Assembly (NCBI GenBank): GCA_947473045.1
Contig: CANJCO010000028.1
Span: 1 to 61,096 of the forward strand
DNA: 61,096 nucleotides
Source of the DNA: Myxococcales bacterium
GTDB lineage: Bacteria > Myxococcota_A > Polyangia > Polyangiales > Polyangiaceae
Direction: 5' to 3'
The translations under genes and the position numbers were made by a program. Positions 50,101-59,990 of the stretch are shown piece after piece. Each line of letters begins with the position of its first letter. Within the stretch, counting starts at the first letter, position 1. The notes beneath the pieces were generated by a model, which worked only from the letters and a program-made list of their open reading frames with translations, ran no database searches and was not told the origin of the DNA.

Positions 50101-51006
50101 TTAGACCAGAACGGCTCCGCCGAAGCGCGCGAACAGCGGTGCGTGATCGGAGCCCGCAGGCATCGGTGCATCACGCGGCAGCTCCGACATGTCGACGAGA
50201 TCTTCGCACACGAATCGCGCCTCCAAAAGCCGCGACATCAGCGCGCTCGAGACAAGAATGTGATCGATGGCCGACGGCTTGCCGTGGTGAAAAATGCTCG
50301 TACGCCTCGCCAGGGGAACCGTCTCTCCGACGGACGCGAGCGCCCCCTCCCCCTTTCCCGTCAGCGCGCGCAGCGGCAGCGATCCGGCAACGTCGTTGAG
50401 ATCGCCCATGACGACGACGTGATCGGCCTCGGCGCGCGCGATCGCCACGTCGACCGCACGACGCACGAACAGCGCCTCGGCGGCGCGCCAGACCAACGTA
50501 CGCACTTCGGCATCGGCCCAATCGCCCTGGGAGGCGGGCTCGACGATCGCCCCGCGAGCGTCTTTCATTGGAAGCGCCCGCATCGACTTGAGGTGCGCCA
50601 CAAACAGCTGCACTTTGCCGATCGGGCCCCCGTCGACGAGCACAGAGACAACGCCGCGCCGCAGCGGAATGCGCGCGCCAAACGGCTCGGGATCGCCCTG
50701 CGAGAAGGCCGGAAACTGCAGCGCTTCGCAGGTGAGAATCTCGCGGCGCAAGACCGGCAGCCGCGAGGCGAGCGAACAGCCGATGCCGCGCGCGTCACGC
50801 GTGCCGTGCACGATCGTCGCGCCGGCGAACCCAGACGCGTCGGCGAGCCGCTGAAACGCGGCGTCCGAAGCGACCTCCTGGAAACCGATGACGTCTGCGG
50901 CGAGCGCGCGCACCTGCGGAGCGACAGCGGCGACCCGGCGGGCGATCGCGGCGGCGTCGAGATCGAACCAGTCGAGCAAGTTGAATGTCGCGAGCGTGAT
51001 CGTCAT
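50101..51006 (-). CDS. Endonuclease/exonuclease/phosphatase (EEP) family protein
   Basis: 301 residues from ATG 51006. The EEP fold acts on nucleic acids, phosphoinositides or sphingolipids with a metal ion. Seen: ITLATFNLLDWF at the start, VIGFQEV with the catalytic Glu, GDLNDVAGS with Asp and Asn, and GSDHAPLFARF with the terminal His. All four active-site blocks are present, so it is probably active. No signal peptide is visible, so the protein may be cytosolic. The substrate is not readable. It is 21 bp from the divergently oriented gene at 51028, so promoters must overlap. Confidence 0.87.
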   Translation of the reverse strand: MTITLATFNLLDWFDLDAAAIARRVAAVAPQVRALAADVIGFQEVASDAAFQRLADASGFAGATIVHGTRDARGIGCSLASRLPVLRREILTCEALQFPAFSQGDPEPFGARIPLRRGVVSVLVDGGPIGKVQLFVAHLKSMRALPMKDARGAIVEPASQGDWADAEVRTLVWRAAEALFVRRAVDVAIARAEADHVVVMGDLNDVAGSLPLRALTGKGEGALASVGETVPLARRTSIFHHGKPSAIDHILVSSALMSRLLEARFVCEDLVDMSELPRDAPMPAGSDHAPLFARFGGAVLV

Positions 51007-51027
51007 GCTGCGCTATTGTCTCACGTC

Positions 51028-51966
51028 ATGGCTCTGCCCGGCGACGACACACTCAAGTGGCTGATTTCCCGGTACGCAACCCTCCGGCTTGCAGCCGGCG
51101 ATGCGTTCGAAGGCGCTGTGCTGGTGACACCGACCGGCGAGCATTTTCCCGACCAGTTCGAGCGCGACGCAGACAGCGTGGCGCGCCTGCTCCGGAGAAT
51201 GATGACCTACACGCCGATTGCTGACTCGGTGCGCGTCGAGCTCGGCTTCTTCGAGCCCGACGAAGCCGAGGCCAGCGGCGGCGGCGGATGCGGTTCTTGT
51301 GGGCCAACGTCGTGCGGGCCCACGTCCGCGGCGGGCGCCAAGGCGACCTCGCGCGTCGACGCAGTGAGCGGCGGCTATCGACTGGCGCTGTCGGTGGCCG
51401 ACGTGAGCGATCCGGTCGTTCTAACGTCGACCGTGGCGCGCTCGCTCGGTGCGATGCTCCTCGCGGAGTCGGCTGTCGATGACGTCGAAGACATCGCTAC
51501 AGACTCCGAAATTGCAGCGGCGGCGTCCGGCTTCGGCGTGCTCGTTGCGTCCGCTGCGCATATCTACGGAAAATCGTGCGGCGGCGTAAGCGTACGCAGA
51601 AACACGGCGCTCTCGCTCGACGAAGCAACGTTCGTCCTCGCGCTCTTCTGCGCGGTGCACGAGATCAAGCCGTCGAAGGCGCGTTCGCATCTGGGCCCGT
51701 CGCAGCGGGAGGCCTTCGCCGAGTCGGTCGATCTCGTCGACAAGAACCCCGCCCTCGTTGCGGCGCTGCGCGACGCGCCCGAAACGCTGACCGACGGAAT
51801 CGTCGCGATCGCGCACGAGCGAAGCTTCTTCGCGCGACTTTTTGCGCGGCGCCCCGAGCCCGAGTTCGCGTCCGCCGGAAAGCGTGCCCTGCCGCGCAGC
51901 GAAGAAGATCTTCGGCGCCTCGCCGAAGCCAAAGCGCTCGTCGAAGAAGCGCTCGGCGAGAGCTGA
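51028..51966 (+). CDS. Protein of unknown function with a Gly/Cys-rich linker
   Basis: 312 residues from ATG 51028. The N-terminal 75 residues (LKWLISRYATLRLAAGD, then AVLVTPTGEHFPDQFERDAD) could be one small domain. The linker GGGGCGSCGPTSCGPTSAAG around residues 87-106 holds three Cys and could bind a metal or form a flexible hinge. The rest is alpha/beta, including LTSTVARSLGAMLLAES, VLVASAAHIYGKSCGG and ATFVLALFCAVHEIKPSKAR. I do not recognise the family. It is 12 bp before the next gene, so they form an operon, with the kinase-PilZ gene possibly included. Confidence 0.75.
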   Translation: MALPGDDTLKWLISRYATLRLAAGDAFEGAVLVTPTGEHFPDQFERDADSVARLLRRMMTYTPIADSVRVELGFFEPDEAEASGGGGCGSCGPTSCGPTSAAGAKATSRVDAVSGGYRLALSVADVSDPVVLTSTVARSLGAMLLAESAVDDVEDIATDSEIAAAASGFGVLVASAAHIYGKSCGGVSVRRNTALSLDEATFVLALFCAVHEIKPSKARSHLGPSQREAFAESVDLVDKNPALVAALRDAPETLTDGIVAIAHERSFFARLFARRPEPEFASAGKRALPRSEEDLRRLAEAKALVEEALGES

Positions 51967-51978
51967 TAGCATCGAAAA

Positions 51979-53661
51979 ATGGAGCGCCTCCCGCCCGTAG
52001 CCCCCGCCGACGAAATCGACCTCTACGTTCGAACCTACACTTCGCTGCTGCGATCGACTGGCGCAGTGCGGGTGCGCGCCTTCGAGGAGGCTCACGCCTA
52101 CAGCGCGTCTTCGCTGCATGCGGGCGCGCTCTCGCCAGAAATCGACGTGGCCGCGTTCGCGTACGCCGCCGCGCGACTGCCCGCGGAAATGATCGGCGTC
52201 ACGCGACTTTATCTGGGTCAGTCGCATGAGCTGTTCGAAGCCGCGGGACTGACGGTGCGCGACTGGGCGCCGGTGCGCGCGCGGGGGCGCCGGCGGCCGA
52301 CGCGCTTCGACGGGCGCGACGCGCTCGCTGTGTTCATCGCGAGCGCGAGCGACATCGACGATCTCGTGCCGATCGTCACAGCGTACCAAATCGAGTGGAA
52401 CAAGATTCACCGCAGGCTCGCGAGCCACGAGCTCAGCGGCAGCGAAGACGTCGCTGCTGCGCTGCAACTCGACCCCGATCAAGTCGCGACGCTCGTCGCT
52501 GCGCTCGGCCGCGATCGCTTCATGGCTGCGCTCGCGGCGATGCGCGCCCGCGAGTGCGACCTGTCGATCGTCATGCTGTCGGCGTCGTACTCGCAATACC
52601 AGCGCGCCGCGCAGCGCTGGTGGAGCGGGGTAGAGCCCAAGTACCTGCGCGCCGAGCGCCCCAGGCGGCCTCCTGTCTACTTTGTGTCGTCGAACACGCA
52701 CGCCATCGCGAACCTCTGGGGTGGCTACGCGCTGTCCAATCAGGCGGCCATCGTCGAGTATGCCGAGCGCGTCAACCCCGAAGGGCTGCGCGACGAGCTC
52801 CGCGCCGCGCTCGCGTCCGGCAACGCGAGCCGCGTTTCCGGCTTTCTGTACTACCTGCTGCGCGGCTTCATTCACGACGACGCGACCGGAGCGCGCGTCG
52901 CGCAGGTGCGCGCCTTTGAAGCCGCGATCGGCCTCGAGCACGTGACCGAGCCGGGCCACGTCGACGTCGACGCGCAGCTCATCGAGCTGTCGAAGCTCGA
53001 CCCCGCGCGCATCGATCCGCGCTTGCGCGTGCCGGGCGTCGAGCGCCTCGTCGGCAGCGACGCGCGCATCATCAACATCGATTATCCCCTCGGCATGTCG
53101 GCCTACCACCTGCTCTCGCGGCTCGGACAAGGGGTCGGCGAGCTGCGGGGGGTCTACATCATGGGCAAGGCCGCGACGCTCAATGGACGCGTCGGCGACG
53201 TCTCGCTGTCGAGCGTCGTATTCGACGAGCACACCCGAAATACGTTCTTGTTCGATAACGCGATCAAGGCGCGCGACGTCTCGAAGTACCTCGAACACGG
53301 CAGCGTTTTTGACAACCAGTCTGCGCTCACCGTGCGCAGCGCGTTTCTTCAAAACACGCGCTACATGGGCGCGTTCTACCGCGACGGCTACACCGTGCTC
53401 GAGATGGAGGCCGGCCCGTTTCTGTCCGCCGCCTACGAGCTGGTGAGCCCCACACGCGTCCGCAGCAACGAGATCGTGAGCCTCGCAGGGCGCACGCCGT
53501 TCGAGTTCGGATTGTTGCACTATGCATCTGATACGCCCTACTCGCGGCGCAAGGAGCTGCTGTCGAAGAGCCTGTCGTATTTCGGTGTAGACAGCACGTA
53601 CGCGTGCGCTATCGCCATCGTCCGGCGTATCCTTGAGCTTGAGGTCGCGCGGCTGCGTTGA
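51979..53661 (+). CDS. Protein of unknown function with phosphorylase-like C-terminal half
   Basis: 560 residues. The N-terminal half is helical with no known motif. The C-terminal half has features of the nucleoside phosphorylase fold: RGVYIMGKAATLNGRVGDV (about 390-408), SSVVFDEHTRNTFLFDN, then DNQSALTVRSAFLQNTRYM, and LEMEAGPFLSAAYEL with Glu475, which resembles the substrate-binding MEAAA patch of that family. LHYASDTPYSRRKEL and SLSYFGVDSTYACAIAI follow. I recall homologs in Bacteroidetes listed as domains of unknown function (possibly DUF6909). Enzyme activity is inference from motif resemblance. Confidence 0.75.
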   Translation: MERLPPVAPADEIDLYVRTYTSLLRSTGAVRVRAFEEAHAYSASSLHAGALSPEIDVAAFAYAAARLPAEMIGVTRLYLGQSHELFEAAGLTVRDWAPVRARGRRRPTRFDGRDALAVFIASASDIDDLVPIVTAYQIEWNKIHRRLASHELSGSEDVAAALQLDPDQVATLVAALGRDRFMAALAAMRARECDLSIVMLSASYSQYQRAAQRWWSGVEPKYLRAERPRRPPVYFVSSNTHAIANLWGGYALSNQAAIVEYAERVNPEGLRDELRAALASGNASRVSGFLYYLLRGFIHDDATGARVAQVRAFEAAIGLEHVTEPGHVDVDAQLIELSKLDPARIDPRLRVPGVERLVGSDARIINIDYPLGMSAYHLLSRLGQGVGELRGVYIMGKAATLNGRVGDVSLSSVVFDEHTRNTFLFDNAIKARDVSKYLEHGSVFDNQSALTVRSAFLQNTRYMGAFYRDGYTVLEMEAGPFLSAAYELVSPTRVRSNEIVSLAGRTPFEFGLLHYASDTPYSRRKELLSKSLSYFGVDSTYACAIAIVRRILELEVARLR

Positions 53662-53724
53662 CCCACTCCCGCTGTTCGAAGCCATGACGAAACGCCCGCC
53701 CCTGCCCGCTCCCCCGGACCGCCT

Positions 53725-54972
53725 GTGAGCGACGATCAGGCTGAGCTGCTCGACGGCCGGTATGCCCTGCGGCGAGAGCTCGGGCGCGGCGGCATTTGCG
53801 TCGTTCATGAGGCCCACCACCGCTTTACCGAGCGACGGGTCGCCGTCAAAACGCTGCTGCCGGAGTATGCAGGCAATGCCTACGCCGCGGAGCGGCTGCT
53901 CGTCGAGGCCACTGCGCTCGGACGGGTTCGGCATCCGTGCGTCGTCGAGGCGATCGACGCGGGGCGCGCCGAGGGGCGCCCTTACCTCGTGATGGAGCTG
54001 CTCGAGGGCGGCAGGAGCCTCGAAGGCGTGCTCGCGACGCGCAGCACGCTGGGCGTAACCGCCGGCGTCAGGCTCGTGCGCCGCATGGCCGACGCGATCG
54101 CGGTATCTCACGAGGCCGGCGTCGTTCATCGGGACATCAAACCCGGCAACGTGCTGCTCGTGCGCGTTCCGTTGCAGGACGATCCGAGCCGCAAGCACAC
54201 GGCAGTCAAGGTCATCGATTACGGTCTCGCCACCATCGACAACCCCATCGGCGGAAACAGTGAAAGCAGACCCGAGGACGGAATCGTCGGCACGCCCGAG
54301 TACATGTCGCTGGAGCGACTCATGGGCACCGCGCCGAACCTCCCTGCGGGCGACGTCTATGCGCTCGGCGTCACGCTCTACGAGTGCCTCACCGGAACGG
54401 TGCCGTTTCCGGGGAATTATCCGCAGGTCCTTCAGGCAGTGGCGACCACGGAGGCCCGCAGGCTGTCGCTCGTGCGCAGCGGCGTTCCCGAGTCGATTTC
54501 CGACGTCGTGCACCGAGCCCTCGCCCGTGAGCCGCAAGACCGCTACCTGCACGCGCGGCAGTTCTGCGACGCGCTCGACACCGCCTATGGCGACCTCGAT
54601 CAGACGATAGCCGAGAGCGTGCCCTCCGAAGACGCCGCGAAGCGCCGAAAATTCTCCCGCGCCGCGTACATCACGCCGGTTCACGTGACGCTCGACGGAG
54701 AGACCTTCGACGCGCGAAGCGAAGACCTGTCGGAGGGCGGGCTGCTGGTGCTCGCTCCCCACGCGATCCGCCTCGGCGCGACGGGCGAAATTCGCTGGGC
54801 GCTTCCTGTGTCGGGCACGATGGTGACCACGCGCGTGCGCGCACAGTGGTCGCGCGCGAACCCCGAGCACCCTCAGGCGCCGTGCGCCCTGGGCCTTGAG
54901 TTCGTCGATGCCGACGCGCAGACGTGCAGCGAGATCACTCGCTACTCGGCGACCGCGGGCAGCCCCGTCTGA
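53725..54972 (+). CDS. Serine/threonine kinase fused to a PilZ domain
   Basis: 415 residues from GTG 53725. Kinase domain residues 10-275: LGRGGICVVHE, Lys42 in VAVKTLL, HRDIKPGNVLL with Asp137, and DYG (Asp165) in place of DFG, followed by GTPEYMSLERL. Catalytic residues are intact. From about residue 307 comes a PilZ domain with the c-di-GMP motifs R308-x-x-x-R312 and D334-x-S-x-x-G339, then the usual beta-strands to VDADAQTC. So c-di-GMP binding is likely and could control the kinase. No membrane helix is seen. It lies 63 bp after the unknown gene at 51979 and may be in the same operon. Confidence 0.93.
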   Translation: MSDDQAELLDGRYALRRELGRGGICVVHEAHHRFTERRVAVKTLLPEYAGNAYAAERLLVEATALGRVRHPCVVEAIDAGRAEGRPYLVMELLEGGRSLEGVLATRSTLGVTAGVRLVRRMADAIAVSHEAGVVHRDIKPGNVLLVRVPLQDDPSRKHTAVKVIDYGLATIDNPIGGNSESRPEDGIVGTPEYMSLERLMGTAPNLPAGDVYALGVTLYECLTGTVPFPGNYPQVLQAVATTEARRLSLVRSGVPESISDVVHRALAREPQDRYLHARQFCDALDTAYGDLDQTIAESVPSEDAAKRRKFSRAAYITPVHVTLDGETFDARSEDLSEGGLLVLAPHAIRLGATGEIRWALPVSGTMVTTRVRAQWSRANPEHPQAPCALGLEFVDADAQTCSEITRYSATAGSPV

Positions 54973-54992: not shown

Positions 54993-55967
54993 CTACGGAA
55001 CGAGGACCAGCTTGCCCGTGGAGCCCCGGGACGCCAGCGCCTCGTGGGCCGTCGCAGCCTCGGCGAGCCGGTACGGAGCGCCGCGCACGATTTTTACGGC
55101 CCCGGTCGCCACCCAGTCTGCGAGTTGCATGAGCTCGGGCTCGCAGCGCCCGCGATCTTCCAAAACCGACGTGAGATAATAGCCCGTCACGGTCAGGTTT
55201 TTGCCCATGAGACCGACCGGCTCAAACGTGCCGCGCAGGTCGCCGCCCGCGGCGCCGTACACAACCATGCGACCGAACGGCGCGAGGCAGGCGAGGTTGC
55301 GTTTGTAGGTCTCCGCGCCGCCCAACATTTCGAGGACGACGTCGACCCCTGCGCCGGACGTCGCCTCCTTCACCCGTTGCGGAAAGTCCGCTGCGGCCGC
55401 GAAACACGCATCGGCGCCGAGTTGCAACGCGAGGGCCTGCTTTTGCGGCGTCGACGCGGTGCCGATTACGACCTTCGCGCCGCGCAGCCTCGCGATCTGC
55501 ACGGCGAGCGCGCCGACGCCGCCAGCCGCCGCATGAACGAGCACGCCCTCGCCAGGCGCGAGCCGACCATGCATGGATAATACATGCATCGCAGTCAGCC
55601 CTTGCACGGGCAGCGCGGCCGCGTCTTCGAAACCGATTGCGTCGGGCAACGCATACACATGCGACGCGCGGGCAAGCATCTTCTCCGCGTAGGCGGCCGC
55701 GCCAAATGCCATAACGCGCTGCCCAACGCGCAATCCGGTTACCCCGGCCCCTACTTCGAGGATCTCGCCAGCAGCCTCCATTCCCGGGGTGTCCGGAAGG
55801 CGGGGCTTGATGAAATAGTCACCTTTTCGGAAATGGAGATCGGCATAGTTCACGCCGATCGCCCGAACCGAAATGACGACGCATCCTGGTCGAACGGCCG
55901 GCTCGTCGACCTCTTCGAGGGCCAGAACGTCAGGTCCTCCCGTGCGGTGGAATCGAATCGCGCGCAT
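54993..55967 (-). CDS. Quinone oxidoreductase-like MDR protein
   Basis: 324 residues from ATG 55967, with GAGGA upstream. This is a medium-chain dehydrogenase/reductase of the zinc-independent quinone oxidoreductase type: MRAIRFHRTGGPDVLALEEV, NYADLHFRKGDYFIKP, PGMEAAGEILEVG, the Rossmann loop GVLVHAAAGGVGALAVQIAR, and GRMVVYGAAGG. No structural or catalytic Zn Cys set is present. It uses NAD(P)H to reduce quinones or enones. It follows boxB by 41 bp on the same strand, so it is probably in the boxC-boxB operon, though it is not one of the core box enzymes. Confidence 0.9.
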   Translation of the reverse strand: MRAIRFHRTGGPDVLALEEVDEPAVRPGCVVISVRAIGVNYADLHFRKGDYFIKPRLPDTPGMEAAGEILEVGAGVTGLRVGQRVMAFGAAAYAEKMLARASHVYALPDAIGFEDAAALPVQGLTAMHVLSMHGRLAPGEGVLVHAAAGGVGALAVQIARLRGAKVVIGTASTPQKQALALQLGADACFAAAADFPQRVKEATSGAGVDVVLEMLGGAETYKRNLACLAPFGRMVVYGAAGGDLRGTFEPVGLMGKNLTVTGYYLTSVLEDRGRCEPELMQLADWVATGAVKIVRGAPYRLAEAATAHEALASRGSTGKLVLVP

Positions 55968-56008
55968 TGGAGAAGTCCTCGCTTTCGGCTGGGGGCGGGC
56001 GCCGCGCG

Positions 56009-57436
56009 TCACACTTCGTGACGAACGTACTCGAACTCGATGGGCCTGCCCTTGATGCCCTGCTTCGGCGGCGCGATCCAGTTGGCCATCTGCTTCGGAT
56101 CGTAGACCGGCTTCGTCATCAAGCTCTTGACGTAGGTCTTGTCGGCTTCGGTGGGCAGCCAGTCAGAGCGGCTGGCAGCAAATTCTTCGGACGTGATGAG
56201 GTTACCCGCCCGATCGAACGACATGCCGGAGTGAATGCCGACGTGGCGGTGAAAACGACGACTCGGCAGCGTAAGCTCAAAGGCCACGCCATGCGCCGCG
56301 ATGGCGCGATTCCACTTGTCGACGCCGCGCTGGCAGTCTTCGACGTACTCGTCGCGGAGCACTTCATTCATCGCGTTTCGCAGCGGCACTTCATCGGTCG
56401 TGAGGCGGCCATCTTGAAACCGTTGCATCGCGTAGCTGCTGCTCAGCGCGATGTGGTCTTCATGGCTGGCCTCTTTTGCGCGGCCTTTGATGCCCGAAGC
56501 GAAGTACGAAGCGGCGTTCGACGAAACCTCGCCGCCGAACAAGTCGAGCGACAGCGAAAACCAAAGGTTCAGGTACCGCTGCATGGTCGGCAGATCGATG
56601 AGACCCAGCGCGCGAACCTGGTCGGGAGACTCGACCTTATGCGCTGCCATTTGGCTCGCCGTACGCTCGACGACGCGCAGCACGCCCGTCTCTCCGACGA
56701 ACATGTGGTGCGCTTCTTCGGTGAGCATGAACCGCGTGGTGCGCGAGAGCGGATCGAAGGCGCTCTCCGCGAGCGCGAGCAGCTGATACTTGCCGTCACG
56801 GTCGGTGAAGAAGGTGAACATGAAAAACGACAGCCAGTCAGAGCACGGCTCGTTGAAAGCGCCGAGGAGCCTGGGCTTGTCGGCGTCTCCGGAGCGGCGC
56901 TCGAGCAGCGACTCGGCTTCCTCGCGGCCGTCCCGACCGAAGTGCGAGTGCAGCAGGTAGACCATCGCCCACAGGTGCCTGCCCTCCTCGACGTTGACCT
57001 GAAACAGATTGCGGAGATCATACACAGATGGGCAGGTCTGCCCGAGCAGCCGCTGCTGCTCGACGCTGGCGGGCTCTGTGTCGCCCTGGGTGACGATGAG
57101 GCGGCGCAGGGTGTTCCTGTGCTCCCCCGGCACCTGCTGCCAAACGGGCTTACCGAAGTCGTCGCCGCACGCGATCGTCCGGTCTTTCACCGGATCGGCG
57201 AGAAAAATGCCCCACCGGTAGTCAGGCATTTTCACGTAGTCGAAGTTCGCCCAGCCATCGCTCTCGACGCTGATCGCGGTGCGCAGAAAGACCTGGTCGT
57301 CCTGGAAGCCGACAGGCCCCATTTCCTTCCACCAGTTGATGTAGTTCGGCTGCCACGCCTCCAGCGCGCGCTGCAGTCGCTTGTCGTCCGCGAGGTGAAC
57401 GTTGTTCGGGATCTTGTCGTCGTTTACTTGCGACAT
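56009..57436 (-). CDS. boxB: Benzoyl-CoA 2,3-epoxidase subunit BoxB
   Basis: 475 residues from ATG 57436, with AAGGAG upstream. BoxB is the di-iron oxygenase that epoxidises benzoyl-CoA with O2 and electrons from BoxA. Seen: WWKEMGPVGFQDDQVFLRTA, FDYVKMPDYRWGIF, the di-iron helix NVEEGRHLWAMVYLLH, a second one FMLTEEAHHMFVGETG, and a C-terminal stretch GRPIEFEYVRHEV. Length and motifs match the family closely. The gene is 13 bp after boxC and is followed by an MDR oxidoreductase. BoxA, the reductase partner, is not in the window. Confidence 0.97.
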   Translation of the reverse strand: MSQVNDDKIPNNVHLADDKRLQRALEAWQPNYINWWKEMGPVGFQDDQVFLRTAISVESDGWANFDYVKMPDYRWGIFLADPVKDRTIACGDDFGKPVWQQVPGEHRNTLRRLIVTQGDTEPASVEQQRLLGQTCPSVYDLRNLFQVNVEEGRHLWAMVYLLHSHFGRDGREEAESLLERRSGDADKPRLLGAFNEPCSDWLSFFMFTFFTDRDGKYQLLALAESAFDPLSRTTRFMLTEEAHHMFVGETGVLRVVERTASQMAAHKVESPDQVRALGLIDLPTMQRYLNLWFSLSLDLFGGEVSSNAASYFASGIKGRAKEASHEDHIALSSSYAMQRFQDGRLTTDEVPLRNAMNEVLRDEYVEDCQRGVDKWNRAIAAHGVAFELTLPSRRFHRHVGIHSGMSFDRAGNLITSEEFAASRSDWLPTEADKTYVKSLMTKPVYDPKQMANWIAPPKQGIKGRPIEFEYVRHEV

Positions 57437-57449
57437 TTTCGGTGCTCCT

Positions 57450-59114
57450 TCAGGTGCGGCGCCAGTCGAACTCGGCCCGCTCGGGCTTACCGTAGAGCGT
57501 GAGCGCGCCACGCTCACCGACGGCATTGGGCCTCTGGAAAATCCAGTTTTGCCAGGCGGTCAGCCGCCCAAAGATCTTCGTTTCCATCGTTTCCGGACCG
57601 CCGAAGCGCAAGTTGGCTTCCATGCCGGTCATCGCGTCGGGCGACAGACTCGCGCGCTCTTCGAACGCGACTCGAATCTCGTCGTCCCAGTCGATATCGT
57701 CGGGGGCAAACGTGACGAGTCCGAGTTTGTTCGCCGCCGGCGTGTCGATCGGACCAACGTGCCCAAGCGTCCTGCCGACGCGCTCGGGCTCGCGCAGAAA
57801 CCGTGACTGCAGCCGCGAAAGGCCGTTGGGCATCGGATACGCGCCCCCGTTCATCGCCGACACTTGCACGCTCACGCCCGCTTCGTCCTTCATGTAGGTG
57901 CGATCGGCAGCGAGCGCGATTTCGAGCAGCGTTCCGGCGAACGCAGAGTCCCCGTCGATGACCGCGAACAAGCTCTTGGCGGTCATGTCGAGGCGCTTGA
58001 GTACGCGCTTGATGAGCAGGCGAACCTCGTGGACGAGGCCGTCGTCCGAGTGCGCCGCGAGCATCGCGTCAACCGCGAGCACCGCCTGCGGATCGCCCTC
58101 GGTGTGGAGCGCCAACGTGCCGATAAGCGGATGGTTGAAGCGCAAGTCGAGGAGCGCGTCGTCGAGCTCTCGAAAGGCTCGCACGCACCAGGCAGCGTCG
58201 CCGGCGGACGCGAGCTCCGCGGGGGTCGAGGGCTCGGGTTCGCGCGGCGTTCGAACGGTGAGCTTGGCCGTGCGTGCGGCGAGATCGAGCTCGACCGAGA
58301 CATACTTGTATTCTGCACCATTTTCGGTACGCGTGACCGACAGCGGGCCGAACTTCATCGGCGCGAAGCTCTTTCGCGTGCTCCGAGCGACCATCGCCTC
58401 GGCGCGCCGTTTGACGCACTCATGGAATTTCGGTTTGCTCGGGGCCTCGTCCACCAGCGCCCATTCAACCGCGCGCTTGCCCCGCACTCCCTCGGCGAGC
58501 GTCGAAAACGCGTCGGCGAGATCGCGACGGATCATGCGCTTGTCGACGAGGCGCGTGAGGCCGCCGGTGCCTGGAAGCACGCCGAGCAACGGGCACTCGG
58601 GGAGGCTGACGGCGCTGCCGCCGTCGTCCTGGAGGACGATCTCATCGCACGCGATCGCGAGCTCGTATCCGCCACCCGACGCGGTGCCGTTGAGGGCCGC
58701 GAGGCTCGAAATACCCGAAAACGCGCTCATCTCTTCGAGGTAAAGGCGCGTCTCGTTGGTGAACTTGCAGAAGTTCACCTTGAAGCCGTGGGTGCTCGAC
58801 CCGAGCATGTAGATGTTCGCGCCGGAGCAGAAGATGCGATCCTTTTCTGAGGCGAAAACGAGCGCCTTGACGTCGGGATGCTCGAAGCGGATGCGCTGCA
58901 GCGCGTCGGCGAGTTCGAGGTCGACTCCAAGATCGTACGAGTTGAGCTTGAGCGGATAGCCCGGGCGCATGCCCTGATCTTCTTTGACGTTCATCACCAG
59001 TCGCGCGACGGCGCCGCCGTACTCCTCGGGCAGCGACAGCTCCCAGTGCTTGTAGCGCTCTGGGCTGGTCTCGAAACGAACGGGCTCGGTCGGGGCGTGG
59101 TTGTGGTCGGCCAT
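57450..59114 (-). CDS. boxC: Benzoyl-CoA-dihydrodiol lyase (ring cleavage) BoxC
   Basis: 554 residues from ATG 59114. BoxC opens the ring of 2,3-epoxybenzoyl-CoA to 3,4-dehydroadipyl-CoA semialdehyde and formate. It is a double crotonase-fold protein: KALVFASEKDRIFCSGANIY, then LAALNGTASGGGYELAIACD, ECPLLGVLPGTGGLTRLVDK, and a second half with LFAVIDGDSAFAGTLLEIAL. Length is as expected. The start has no ribosome site and lies 57 bp from the divergent boxR start. An in-frame extension upstream runs over the operator repeats and is not expected to be translated. First gene of boxC-boxB-MDR. Confidence 0.96.
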   Translation of the reverse strand: MADHNHAPTEPVRFETSPERYKHWELSLPEEYGGAVARLVMNVKEDQGMRPGYPLKLNSYDLGVDLELADALQRIRFEHPDVKALVFASEKDRIFCSGANIYMLGSSTHGFKVNFCKFTNETRLYLEEMSAFSGISSLAALNGTASGGGYELAIACDEIVLQDDGGSAVSLPECPLLGVLPGTGGLTRLVDKRMIRRDLADAFSTLAEGVRGKRAVEWALVDEAPSKPKFHECVKRRAEAMVARSTRKSFAPMKFGPLSVTRTENGAEYKYVSVELDLAARTAKLTVRTPREPEPSTPAELASAGDAAWCVRAFRELDDALLDLRFNHPLIGTLALHTEGDPQAVLAVDAMLAAHSDDGLVHEVRLLIKRVLKRLDMTAKSLFAVIDGDSAFAGTLLEIALAADRTYMKDEAGVSVQVSAMNGGAYPMPNGLSRLQSRFLREPERVGRTLGHVGPIDTPAANKLGLVTFAPDDIDWDDEIRVAFEERASLSPDAMTGMEANLRFGGPETMETKIFGRLTAWQNWIFQRPNAVGERGALTLYGKPERAEFDWRRT

Positions 59115-59155
59115 CGGTTTGAAAAAAGTACGCGAGGCGGGCGCGTCAATCAAGT

Positions 59156-59167
59156 AGTATACTTCAT
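59156..59167. promoter_or_regulatory. Direct repeat copy 1 in the boxC-boxR gap
   Basis: AGTATACTTCAT lies in the gap between boxC and boxR. It matches a second copy 29 bp on at 10 of 12 positions and contains the perfect palindrome AGTATACT, whose TATACT can serve as a -10 box on either strand. An operator for BoxR is the likely use, since BoxR represses box genes in the absence of benzoyl-CoA. Confidence 0.5.
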
Positions 59168-59171
59168 CAAG

Positions 59172-59990
59172 TTGAGCGTAACGCACTATACTGCATGCGA
59201 CTCCGGTCGCAGAGACGCGCTCCTGCTCGGGCTGGGCGCTGCGGTGCGCGCCCGGCGGACGGAGCTCGGATTCACCTTGAAGGCCCTCGGCGAACGGGCG
59301 CAGGTGAGCGAGCGATTTCTCGTACAGCTCGAGGGCGGCAGCGGAAACATTTCAGTCGCCCGCCTCCTCGACGTCGCCGACGCGCTGGGCACCTCGCCCT
59401 CCGCGTTGCTCGCAGACGCATCGAGCGCGCCTCCGGCGATCGGACGCCACGTGGCGCTCGTGGGGCTGCGCGGCGCCGGCAAGAGCACGATCGGCGCGAG
59501 GGTCGCGGCCGAGCTCGGCGTTGGATTCGTTGAGCTCGACGCGCTCGTGGCCCGCGAGGCCGGGATGAGCCTCGCGACGATCTTCGAAGTGCACGGCGAG
59601 TCATGGTTCCACCGTGCGGAGAGGGACGCCCTCGCGCGGCTGCTGGCCCACGAGCGGCCCGCGGTGATTTCCACCGGCGGCTCGCTCGTCACGCACGCCA
59701 CGACCTGGTCGATGCTGCGGGGGCGAGCGCTCACGGTGTGGCTCAAGGCCTCTGCCGACGACCATTGGAACCGCGTCGTCGCACAGGGTGATGGTCGACC
59801 GATGCGTGGGCGTCCCGAGGCGATGACCGAGCTGAAAACGCTGCTTCGGGAACGCCGTCCCCTGTACGCCATGGCAGAGGCCGCGATCGACACGACGAGC
59901 ATGTCGCTCGAAGACGCTGTAGAAGAGGTCGCGCAAATCGCGCGACGCGCGAGCAAGCACGACACGACGGGCAAAGGGAGCAGCAGATGA
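59172..59990 (+). CDS. boxR: BoxR regulator: XRE helix-turn-helix fused to shikimate-kinase-like domain
   Basis: 272 residues from TTG 59172, the only plausible start codon: no ATG is in frame, and GTG 59244 would cut into the first helix of the DNA-binding domain. Residues 15-80 are an XRE domain ([40 protein letters not shown]). The rest is a shikimate-kinase-like P-loop domain ([17 protein letters not shown]) that in BoxR binds benzoyl-CoA and relieves repression. It is not a true shikimate kinase. The stop overlaps the boxD start (ATGA), so regulator and enzyme are coupled. Confidence 0.93.
59185..59196. promoter_or_regulatory. Direct repeat copy 2, over the boxR start
   Basis: ACTATACTGCAT is the second copy of the 12-bp element, 29 bp after the first. 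If translation starts at TTG 59172, it lies within the first codons of boxR. It has a near-palindrome, GCACTATACTGC. Two copies spaced by nearly three helical turns on the same face would suit a cooperative dimer. Confidence 0.45.

What the first reader, a model, noticed from the sequence alone, without database searches (positions are those of the whole stretch)
50101..54972. Uncharacterised operon: EEP enzyme, Cys-linker protein, phosphorylase-like protein, kinase-PilZ
A 21-bp divergent gap links the EEP gene with a three-gene run spaced 12 and 63 bp. It combines a nuclease or phosphatase, a protein with a three-Cys Gly linker, a protein of unknown function with phosphorylase-like motifs and a c-di-GMP-gated kinase. 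Together they may form a nucleotide-related signalling system. I know no published equivalent.
Basis: inference. Interest (0 to 1): 0.65.

Follow-up and report, generated by a model that had tools for sequence, protein, structure and literature searches.

The report
Nucleoside-cleaving enzyme cluster with unrelated kinase
In an uncultured myxobacterium, three neighbouring genes kept together in relatives centre on an unnamed protein family (DUF6909) that looks like a divergent enzyme for splitting nucleosides into base and sugar; the kinase beside them is an unrelated local neighbour, so this is more likely nucleotide recycling than a new signalling system.

Summary
The layout is as described: EEP gene (-), 21-bp gap, Cys-linker gene, 12 bp, 560-aa gene, 63 bp, kinase-PilZ. 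The four-gene 'operon' is not a conserved unit. In the same GTDB family, EEP, Cys-linker and 560-aa genes stay together across about 11 genera; the EEP orthologue is in 11/11 genomes with the 560-aa gene and 2/26 without. The kinase-PilZ is not there, not even in the congener; the genome holds about 112 kinases.

The 560-aa protein is full-length Pfam DUF6909 (no published work found). Its predicted C-terminal half has the NP-I fold (purine/uridine phosphorylases, AMP nucleosidase; VIA Z 19.7), with the NP-I signature Met-Glu...Ser-Asp invariant in 37 sequences, yet no Pfam NP-I hit. In Chloroflexota it lies next to xanthine-dehydrogenase-type genes (15 of 28 loci). In Actinomycetota it directly precedes phosphopentomutase deoB, near a PnrA-type importer, deoC, cdd, punA and deoA. 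I conclude DUF6909 is a divergent nucleoside (probably purine) phosphorylase or nucleosidase, and the three-gene module a nucleotide/nucleoside scavenging unit. The Cys protein is a new family with three conserved cysteines and a weak, non-catalytic zincin-like fold. The signalling reading is not supported; kinase-PilZ fusions are known (Pkn1).

The parts
50101..51006 (-). EEP-superfamily nuclease/phosphatase, 301 aa, all catalytic motifs present
   Evidence: PF03372 E 7e-15; motifs; orthologue in 11/11 DUF6909 genomes of the family
51007..51027 (.). 21-bp divergent intergenic gap
   Evidence: sequence
51028..51966 (+). Cys-linker protein, 312 aa; family almost wholly confined to this GTDB family; weak, non-catalytic zincin-like fold
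   Evidence: no Pfam/NCBIfam family above cut-off; in 34 of 37 genomes of the family; model pLDDT 80; BepA Z 7.0
51277..51327 (+). Gly-rich linker with C88, C91, C95 (conserved pattern C-x(n)-C)
51577..51579 (+). C184 of the invariant K-x-C motif
   Evidence: 35/35 homologues
51979..53661 (+). DUF6909 protein, 560 aa: predicted nucleoside phosphorylase/nucleosidase
   Evidence: PF21850 E 2e-198; NP-I fold; context
52609..53646 (+). NP-I fold domain (residues 211-556)
   Evidence: VIA Z 19.7 to 3uay, 214 residues at 2.6 A
53401..53412 (+). E475-M476-E477-A478, NP-I ribose-binding signature
   Evidence: E475, M476 and E477 invariant in 37 sequences, A478 nearly so; register
53527..53532 (+). S517-D518, NP-I catalytic/base-recognition position
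   Evidence: invariant in 37 sequences
53725..54972 (+). Ser/Thr kinase-PilZ protein, 415 aa; local neighbour, not part of the conserved module
   Evidence: absence in relatives

Best explanation
EEP, Cys protein and DUF6909 form a conserved three-gene module for scavenging nucleotides or nucleosides; the kinase-PilZ gene is a lineage-specific neighbour. DUF6909 is a divergent, two-domain NP-I enzyme that splits the N-glycosidic bond of a nucleoside, most likely a purine one. Glu477 would hold the ribose hydroxyls and Asp518 would protonate the base. Phosphate attack (giving ribose-1-phosphate for DeoB) is slightly favoured over water. The EEP enzyme probably feeds it by cutting nucleic acid or removing phosphate. 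The Cys protein is probably a non-catalytic, metal- or thiol-binding partner. Shown: the genes, conserved linkage, predicted fold, invariant motifs and pathway context. Inferred: activity, substrate, phosphorolysis versus hydrolysis, and the roles of EEP and the Cys protein.
For: Fold: AlphaFold2 model pLDDT 88.4, pTM 0.88; Foldseek: 444 chains at E <= 0.001, the listed best all NP-I enzymes, top AMP nucleosidase; VIA Z 19.7, 214 residues, 2.6 A to B. cereus adenosine phosphorylase. Motifs: E475/M476/E477 and S517/D518 invariant in 37 sequences from at least three phyla, equivalent to M404, E405 and D428, the active-site residues conserved between AMP nucleosidase and its structural homologues (PMC9584410); profile alignment puts MEMEA on MEMEA and ASD on VSD. 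Context: 15 of 28 Chloroflexota loci are directly next to same-strand xanthine-dehydrogenase-type genes, several with XdhC and some with YqeB. Actinomycetota: DUF6909 directly followed by DeoB in L080 and L089; PnrA/Bmp ABC importer genes upstream in L083 and L089; DeoC, Cdd, PunA and DeoA in L089. Module: EEP orthologue in 11/11 DUF6909 genomes versus 2/26 without; Cys gene upstream of DUF6909 in all 12 testable genomes of the family.
Against: No sequence-level hit to PF01048 in any of 37 members, and hhalign probability to a four-sequence NP-I set is near zero, so homology rests on a predicted structure. The phosphate-binding Arg of hexameric phosphorylases (E. coli PNP Arg87 by this register) is Ile/Val here, with an invariant Lys in place of the nearby Ser, which argues for hydrolysis and against the DeoB hint. 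No deo or xdh genes were found beside the myxobacterial copies. The family genomes are related, so the Fisher test is not phylogeny-corrected, and gpsA is also syntenic. One relative (G132) has no EEP near the pair and one named locus (L085) no Cys gene.
Confidence: 0.72

Rival explanations
1. DUF6909 is a nucleosidase (hydrolase), like AMP nucleosidase, acting on nucleotides or nucleosides rather than a phosphorylase.
For: Foldseek top hits are AMP nucleosidases, which also carry an extra N-terminal domain; phosphate-binding Arg of hexameric phosphorylases missing; 282 Myxococcota genomes lack AMP nucleosidase (PF10423).
Against: DeoB next door in Actinomycetota implies ribose-1-phosphate; VIA ranks nucleoside phosphorylases and AMP nucleosidase as tied (19.7 versus 18.8); the N-terminal domains were not shown to match.
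Confidence: 0.4
2. All four genes form a c-di-GMP-controlled signalling operon, the kinase regulating the other three.
For: Same strand, 63-bp gap, no terminator-like site found in that gap; PilZ motifs intact.
Against: Kinase absent from this position in the congener (NIF3 gene instead) and in other genera; kinases near other DUF6909 genes lack PilZ; about one kinase per 46 kb in this genome.
Confidence: 0.08
3. DUF6909 has the NP-I fold but is a non-enzymatic nucleoside sensor or a defence effector.
For: Patchy distribution (35 of 377 genomes of the phylum).
Against: Invariant catalytic residues and catabolic gene context in two phyla.
Confidence: 0.07
4. The three-gene adjacency is only inherited synteny with no shared function.
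For: GpsA is syntenic too, and the genomes belong to one GTDB family.
Against: EEP is present almost only where DUF6909 is, and adjacency persists although EEP and Cys proteins have mostly dropped to 30-47% identity and intervening genes have changed.
Confidence: 0.2

Closest known systems
NP-I nucleoside phosphorylases (DeoD, B. cereus adenosine phosphorylase, Udp)
   Same: Predicted fold of residues 211-556; Met-Glu and Ser-Asp positions; neighbours in other phyla are deo/xdh-type genes
   Different: 560 aa with a 200-residue N-terminal domain, no PF01048 hit, canonical phosphate-binding Arg replaced, long insert between the MEA helix and the SD strand
AMP nucleosidase (Amn)
   Same: Two-part architecture with NP-I C-terminal domain; top Foldseek hit
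   Different: No AMNp_N (PF10423) match; N-terminal domains not shown to correspond; substrate unknown
Pfam DUF6909 (PF21850)
   Same: Full-length member, E 2e-198
   Different: Family has no function assigned; the held open-access library of 5.39 million papers does not mention it
Pkn1 of Myxococcus xanthus (Ser/Thr kinase-PilZ)
   Same: Kinase plus PilZ domain in one protein (PMC8316039)
   Different: Pkn1's PilZ is predicted not to bind c-di-GMP; here both motifs are present
M48-type zincins such as BepA
   Same: Weak resemblance of the Cys protein's model (Z 7.0, 126 residues, 4.5 A)
   Different: No HExxH in 35 homologues; Z in the range where chance arrangements occur

Membership tests
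DUF6909 (PF21850) | Match above Pfam's gathering score over the whole model | tested here: met
   660 bits against 27, profile 1-535/535
NP-I superfamily (fold) | NP-I alpha/beta fold | tested here: met
   Predicted model; Z 19.7, 214 residues, 2.6 A; not an experimental structure
NP-I superfamily (fold) | Conserved Met-Glu and Asp active-site residues | tested here: met
   E475/M476/E477 and D518 invariant in 37 sequences; register from a profile alignment of low probability
Pfam PNP_UDP_1 (PF01048) | Sequence match above cut-off | tested here: not met
   No match in 37 members at E <= 10
Hexameric phosphorylases (DeoD/Udp) | Phosphate-binding Arg before the GS(C/A)G motif | tested here: not met
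   Ile/Val at that position, invariant Lys397 for the Ser; register rests on a weak alignment
AMP nucleosidase | AMNp_N domain (PF10423) upstream of the NP-I domain | tested here: not met
   Only DUF6909 matches; no PF10423 in own genome
Nucleoside phosphorylase (activity) | Phosphate-dependent release of base | not testable with these tools
   Needs an enzyme assay
EEP superfamily | Domain match and catalytic motifs | tested here: met
   PF03372 55.8 bits against 24.5; motifs
Zincin metallopeptidases (Cys protein) | HExxH | tested here: not met
   Absent in 35/35
c-di-GMP-binding PilZ | RxxxR and (D/N)xSxxG | tested here: met
   RKFSR, DLSEGG; binding itself not tested

The most novel reading that the evidence does not exclude
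DUF6909 is a separate class of N-ribosyl-cleaving enzyme, missed by sequence classification, that in this myxobacterial family works as a complex with an EEP nuclease/phosphatase and a three-cysteine pseudo-zincin, channelling nucleotides (for instance from prey nucleic acid) to free base.
Probability: 0.15. Interest if true: 0.65.

Novelty: new variant of a known kind. Interest (0 to 1): 0.45.

Why it matters
It gives a testable function to an unnamed 560-aa family found in at least three bacterial phyla, with a named activity, catalytic residues and likely substrates. It would add a divergent branch to the NP-I enzymes of nucleoside salvage, a group used in biocatalysis and drug design. It also removes the kinase from the picture, so effort is not spent on a supposed c-di-GMP signalling operon.

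Tried and rejected
PDB sequence searches with DUF6909, the Cys protein and EEP gave nothing useful. Sequence-profile comparison of DUF6909 with four E. coli NP-I proteins was not significant, though in register. Co-occurrence of DUF6909 with molybdenum hydroxylases inside Myxococcota is uninformative: 43/59 genomes have them. AMP nucleosidase as a source of a larger profile: none in 282 genomes. The TPR protein's C-terminus as a relative of the Cys protein: no signal. Neighbours of the Cys gene in genomes without DUF6909: no single conserved partner.

Full report
Observation. The four genes, their strands and the 21, 12 and 63 bp gaps are as reported. The families are EEP (PF03372), no family for the 312-aa Cys protein, DUF6909 (PF21850, full length) for the 560-aa protein, and kinase plus PilZ for the last. 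The EEP catalytic motifs and both PilZ c-di-GMP motifs are intact. The window is one contig of a 5.15-Mb, 138-contig assembly; named relatives are metagenome-assembled Myxococcota/Polyangiaceae.

Conservation. In 37 genomes of the same GTDB family, 11 carry a closely related DUF6909 (a further genome, G010, has a divergent copy), and 34 carry the Cys protein. Wherever it can be tested (12 genomes including two fetched later) the Cys gene lies upstream of DUF6909 on the same strand, at 0 to about 1100 bp. A strong EEP orthologue (over 140 bits) is in all 11 DUF6909 genomes and in only 2 of the other 26 (Fisher 9e-8, not corrected for phylogeny), usually divergent from the Cys gene and in G021 co-directional. 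Exceptions: G132 has no EEP near the pair, L085 no Cys gene. GpsA is also syntenic in several, so part of the pattern may be inherited order.

Kinase. In the congener G001 the gene after DUF6909 is a NIF3-family gene. No kinase-PilZ was seen at this position in other genera; the seven kinases checked near other DUF6909 genes lack a PilZ domain. The genome has about 112 kinase matches over cut-off, one per 46 kb, so a kinase nearby is expected fairly often. A kinase-PilZ protein, Pkn1, is already known in M. xanthus (PMC8316039). The kinase is therefore left out of the module.

DUF6909 fold. The alignment of 37 sequences (Myxococcota, Chloroflexota, Actinomycetota and others) shows invariant E475, M476, E477, G479, P480, S517 and D518, with A478 nearly invariant. 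The model is confident (pLDDT 88.4, pTM 0.88). Foldseek gives 444 PDB chains at E <= 0.001; the 50 listed are all AMP nucleosidase, MTA/SAH nucleosidase, uridine phosphorylase or purine nucleoside phosphorylase. VIA gives Z 19.7 over 214 residues at 2.6 A for residues 212-553 with B. cereus adenosine phosphorylase; AMP nucleosidase is 18.8 (tied). No member matches PF01048. The AMP nucleosidase paper names M404, E405 and D428 as the active-site residues conserved across its structural homologues (PMC9584410). By the weak but consistent profile alignment these correspond to M476, E477 and D518. Asp rather than Asn at that last position goes with acceptance of 6-aminopurines in the known enzymes (PMC5074518), and E. 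coli Udp lacks the SD pair, so a purine nucleoside is the likelier substrate (inference).

DUF6909 context elsewhere. In 15 of 28 Chloroflexota loci the gene is directly beside same-strand genes for xanthine-dehydrogenase-type molybdenum hydroxylase subunits, several with XdhC and some with YqeB; the enzyme subunits do not reach NCBIfam equivalog cut-offs, so xanthine as substrate is not proven. In Solirubrobacterales (L080, L089) the next gene is phosphopentomutase DeoB, over its curated cut-off. L089 and L083 have a Bmp/PnrA-type ABC importer upstream, and L089 also has DeoC, cytidine deaminase, PunA-type phosphorylase and thymidine phosphorylase. Two independent phyla thus place DUF6909 in nucleoside catabolism.

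Mechanism. The best reading is N-glycosidic bond cleavage of a nucleoside. DeoB next door favours phosphorolysis; the missing phosphate-site Arg (I394, with K397 for the usual Ser) favours hydrolysis; I do not resolve this. The window's genome has three PF01048 proteins, which look like a trimeric PNP, an MTA phosphorylase and a futalosine hydrolase (with ORFs; names by my reading), with none of the hexameric adenosine-accepting kind recognised, a gap that DUF6909 could fill (inference).

Cys protein. Present in nearly all genomes of the family, 35/35 with FPD, two linker cysteines (one, in L116, by eye, where the scripted pattern window missed it) and K-x-C, none with HExxH. Its model (pLDDT 80) best resembles M48-type zincins (BepA Z 7.0), within the chance range stated by the tool. 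A metal- or thiol-binding partner protein is a guess.

Verdict. Ordinary in kind (nucleoside metabolism) but a real functional lead for an unnamed family; the signalling-operon reading is not supported.

Noticed in passing
window 54993-59990: A probable benzoyl-CoA (box) cluster: quinone-oxidoreductase-like gene, BoxB (TIGR03225 over cut-off), an enoyl-CoA hydratase-type gene (BoxC-like by position) and an HTH-plus-shikimate-kinase protein that looks like BoxR. BoxB also lies near DUF6909 in L119 and near the Cys gene in L117.
   Followed up: partly
L112 (G010) and L160-L163: A divergent DUF6909 branch (about 23-27% identity to the window copy) in other Myxococcota, context not studied.
   Followed up: no
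L060, L093: In some Chloroflexota (Caldilineaceae-type) DUF6909 has a PlsC-type acyltransferase gene just downstream instead of xdh genes.
   Followed up: no
L117 (G034): A genome that keeps EEP and Cys orthologues on separate contigs but has no DUF6909, a possible secondary loss.
   Followed up: no
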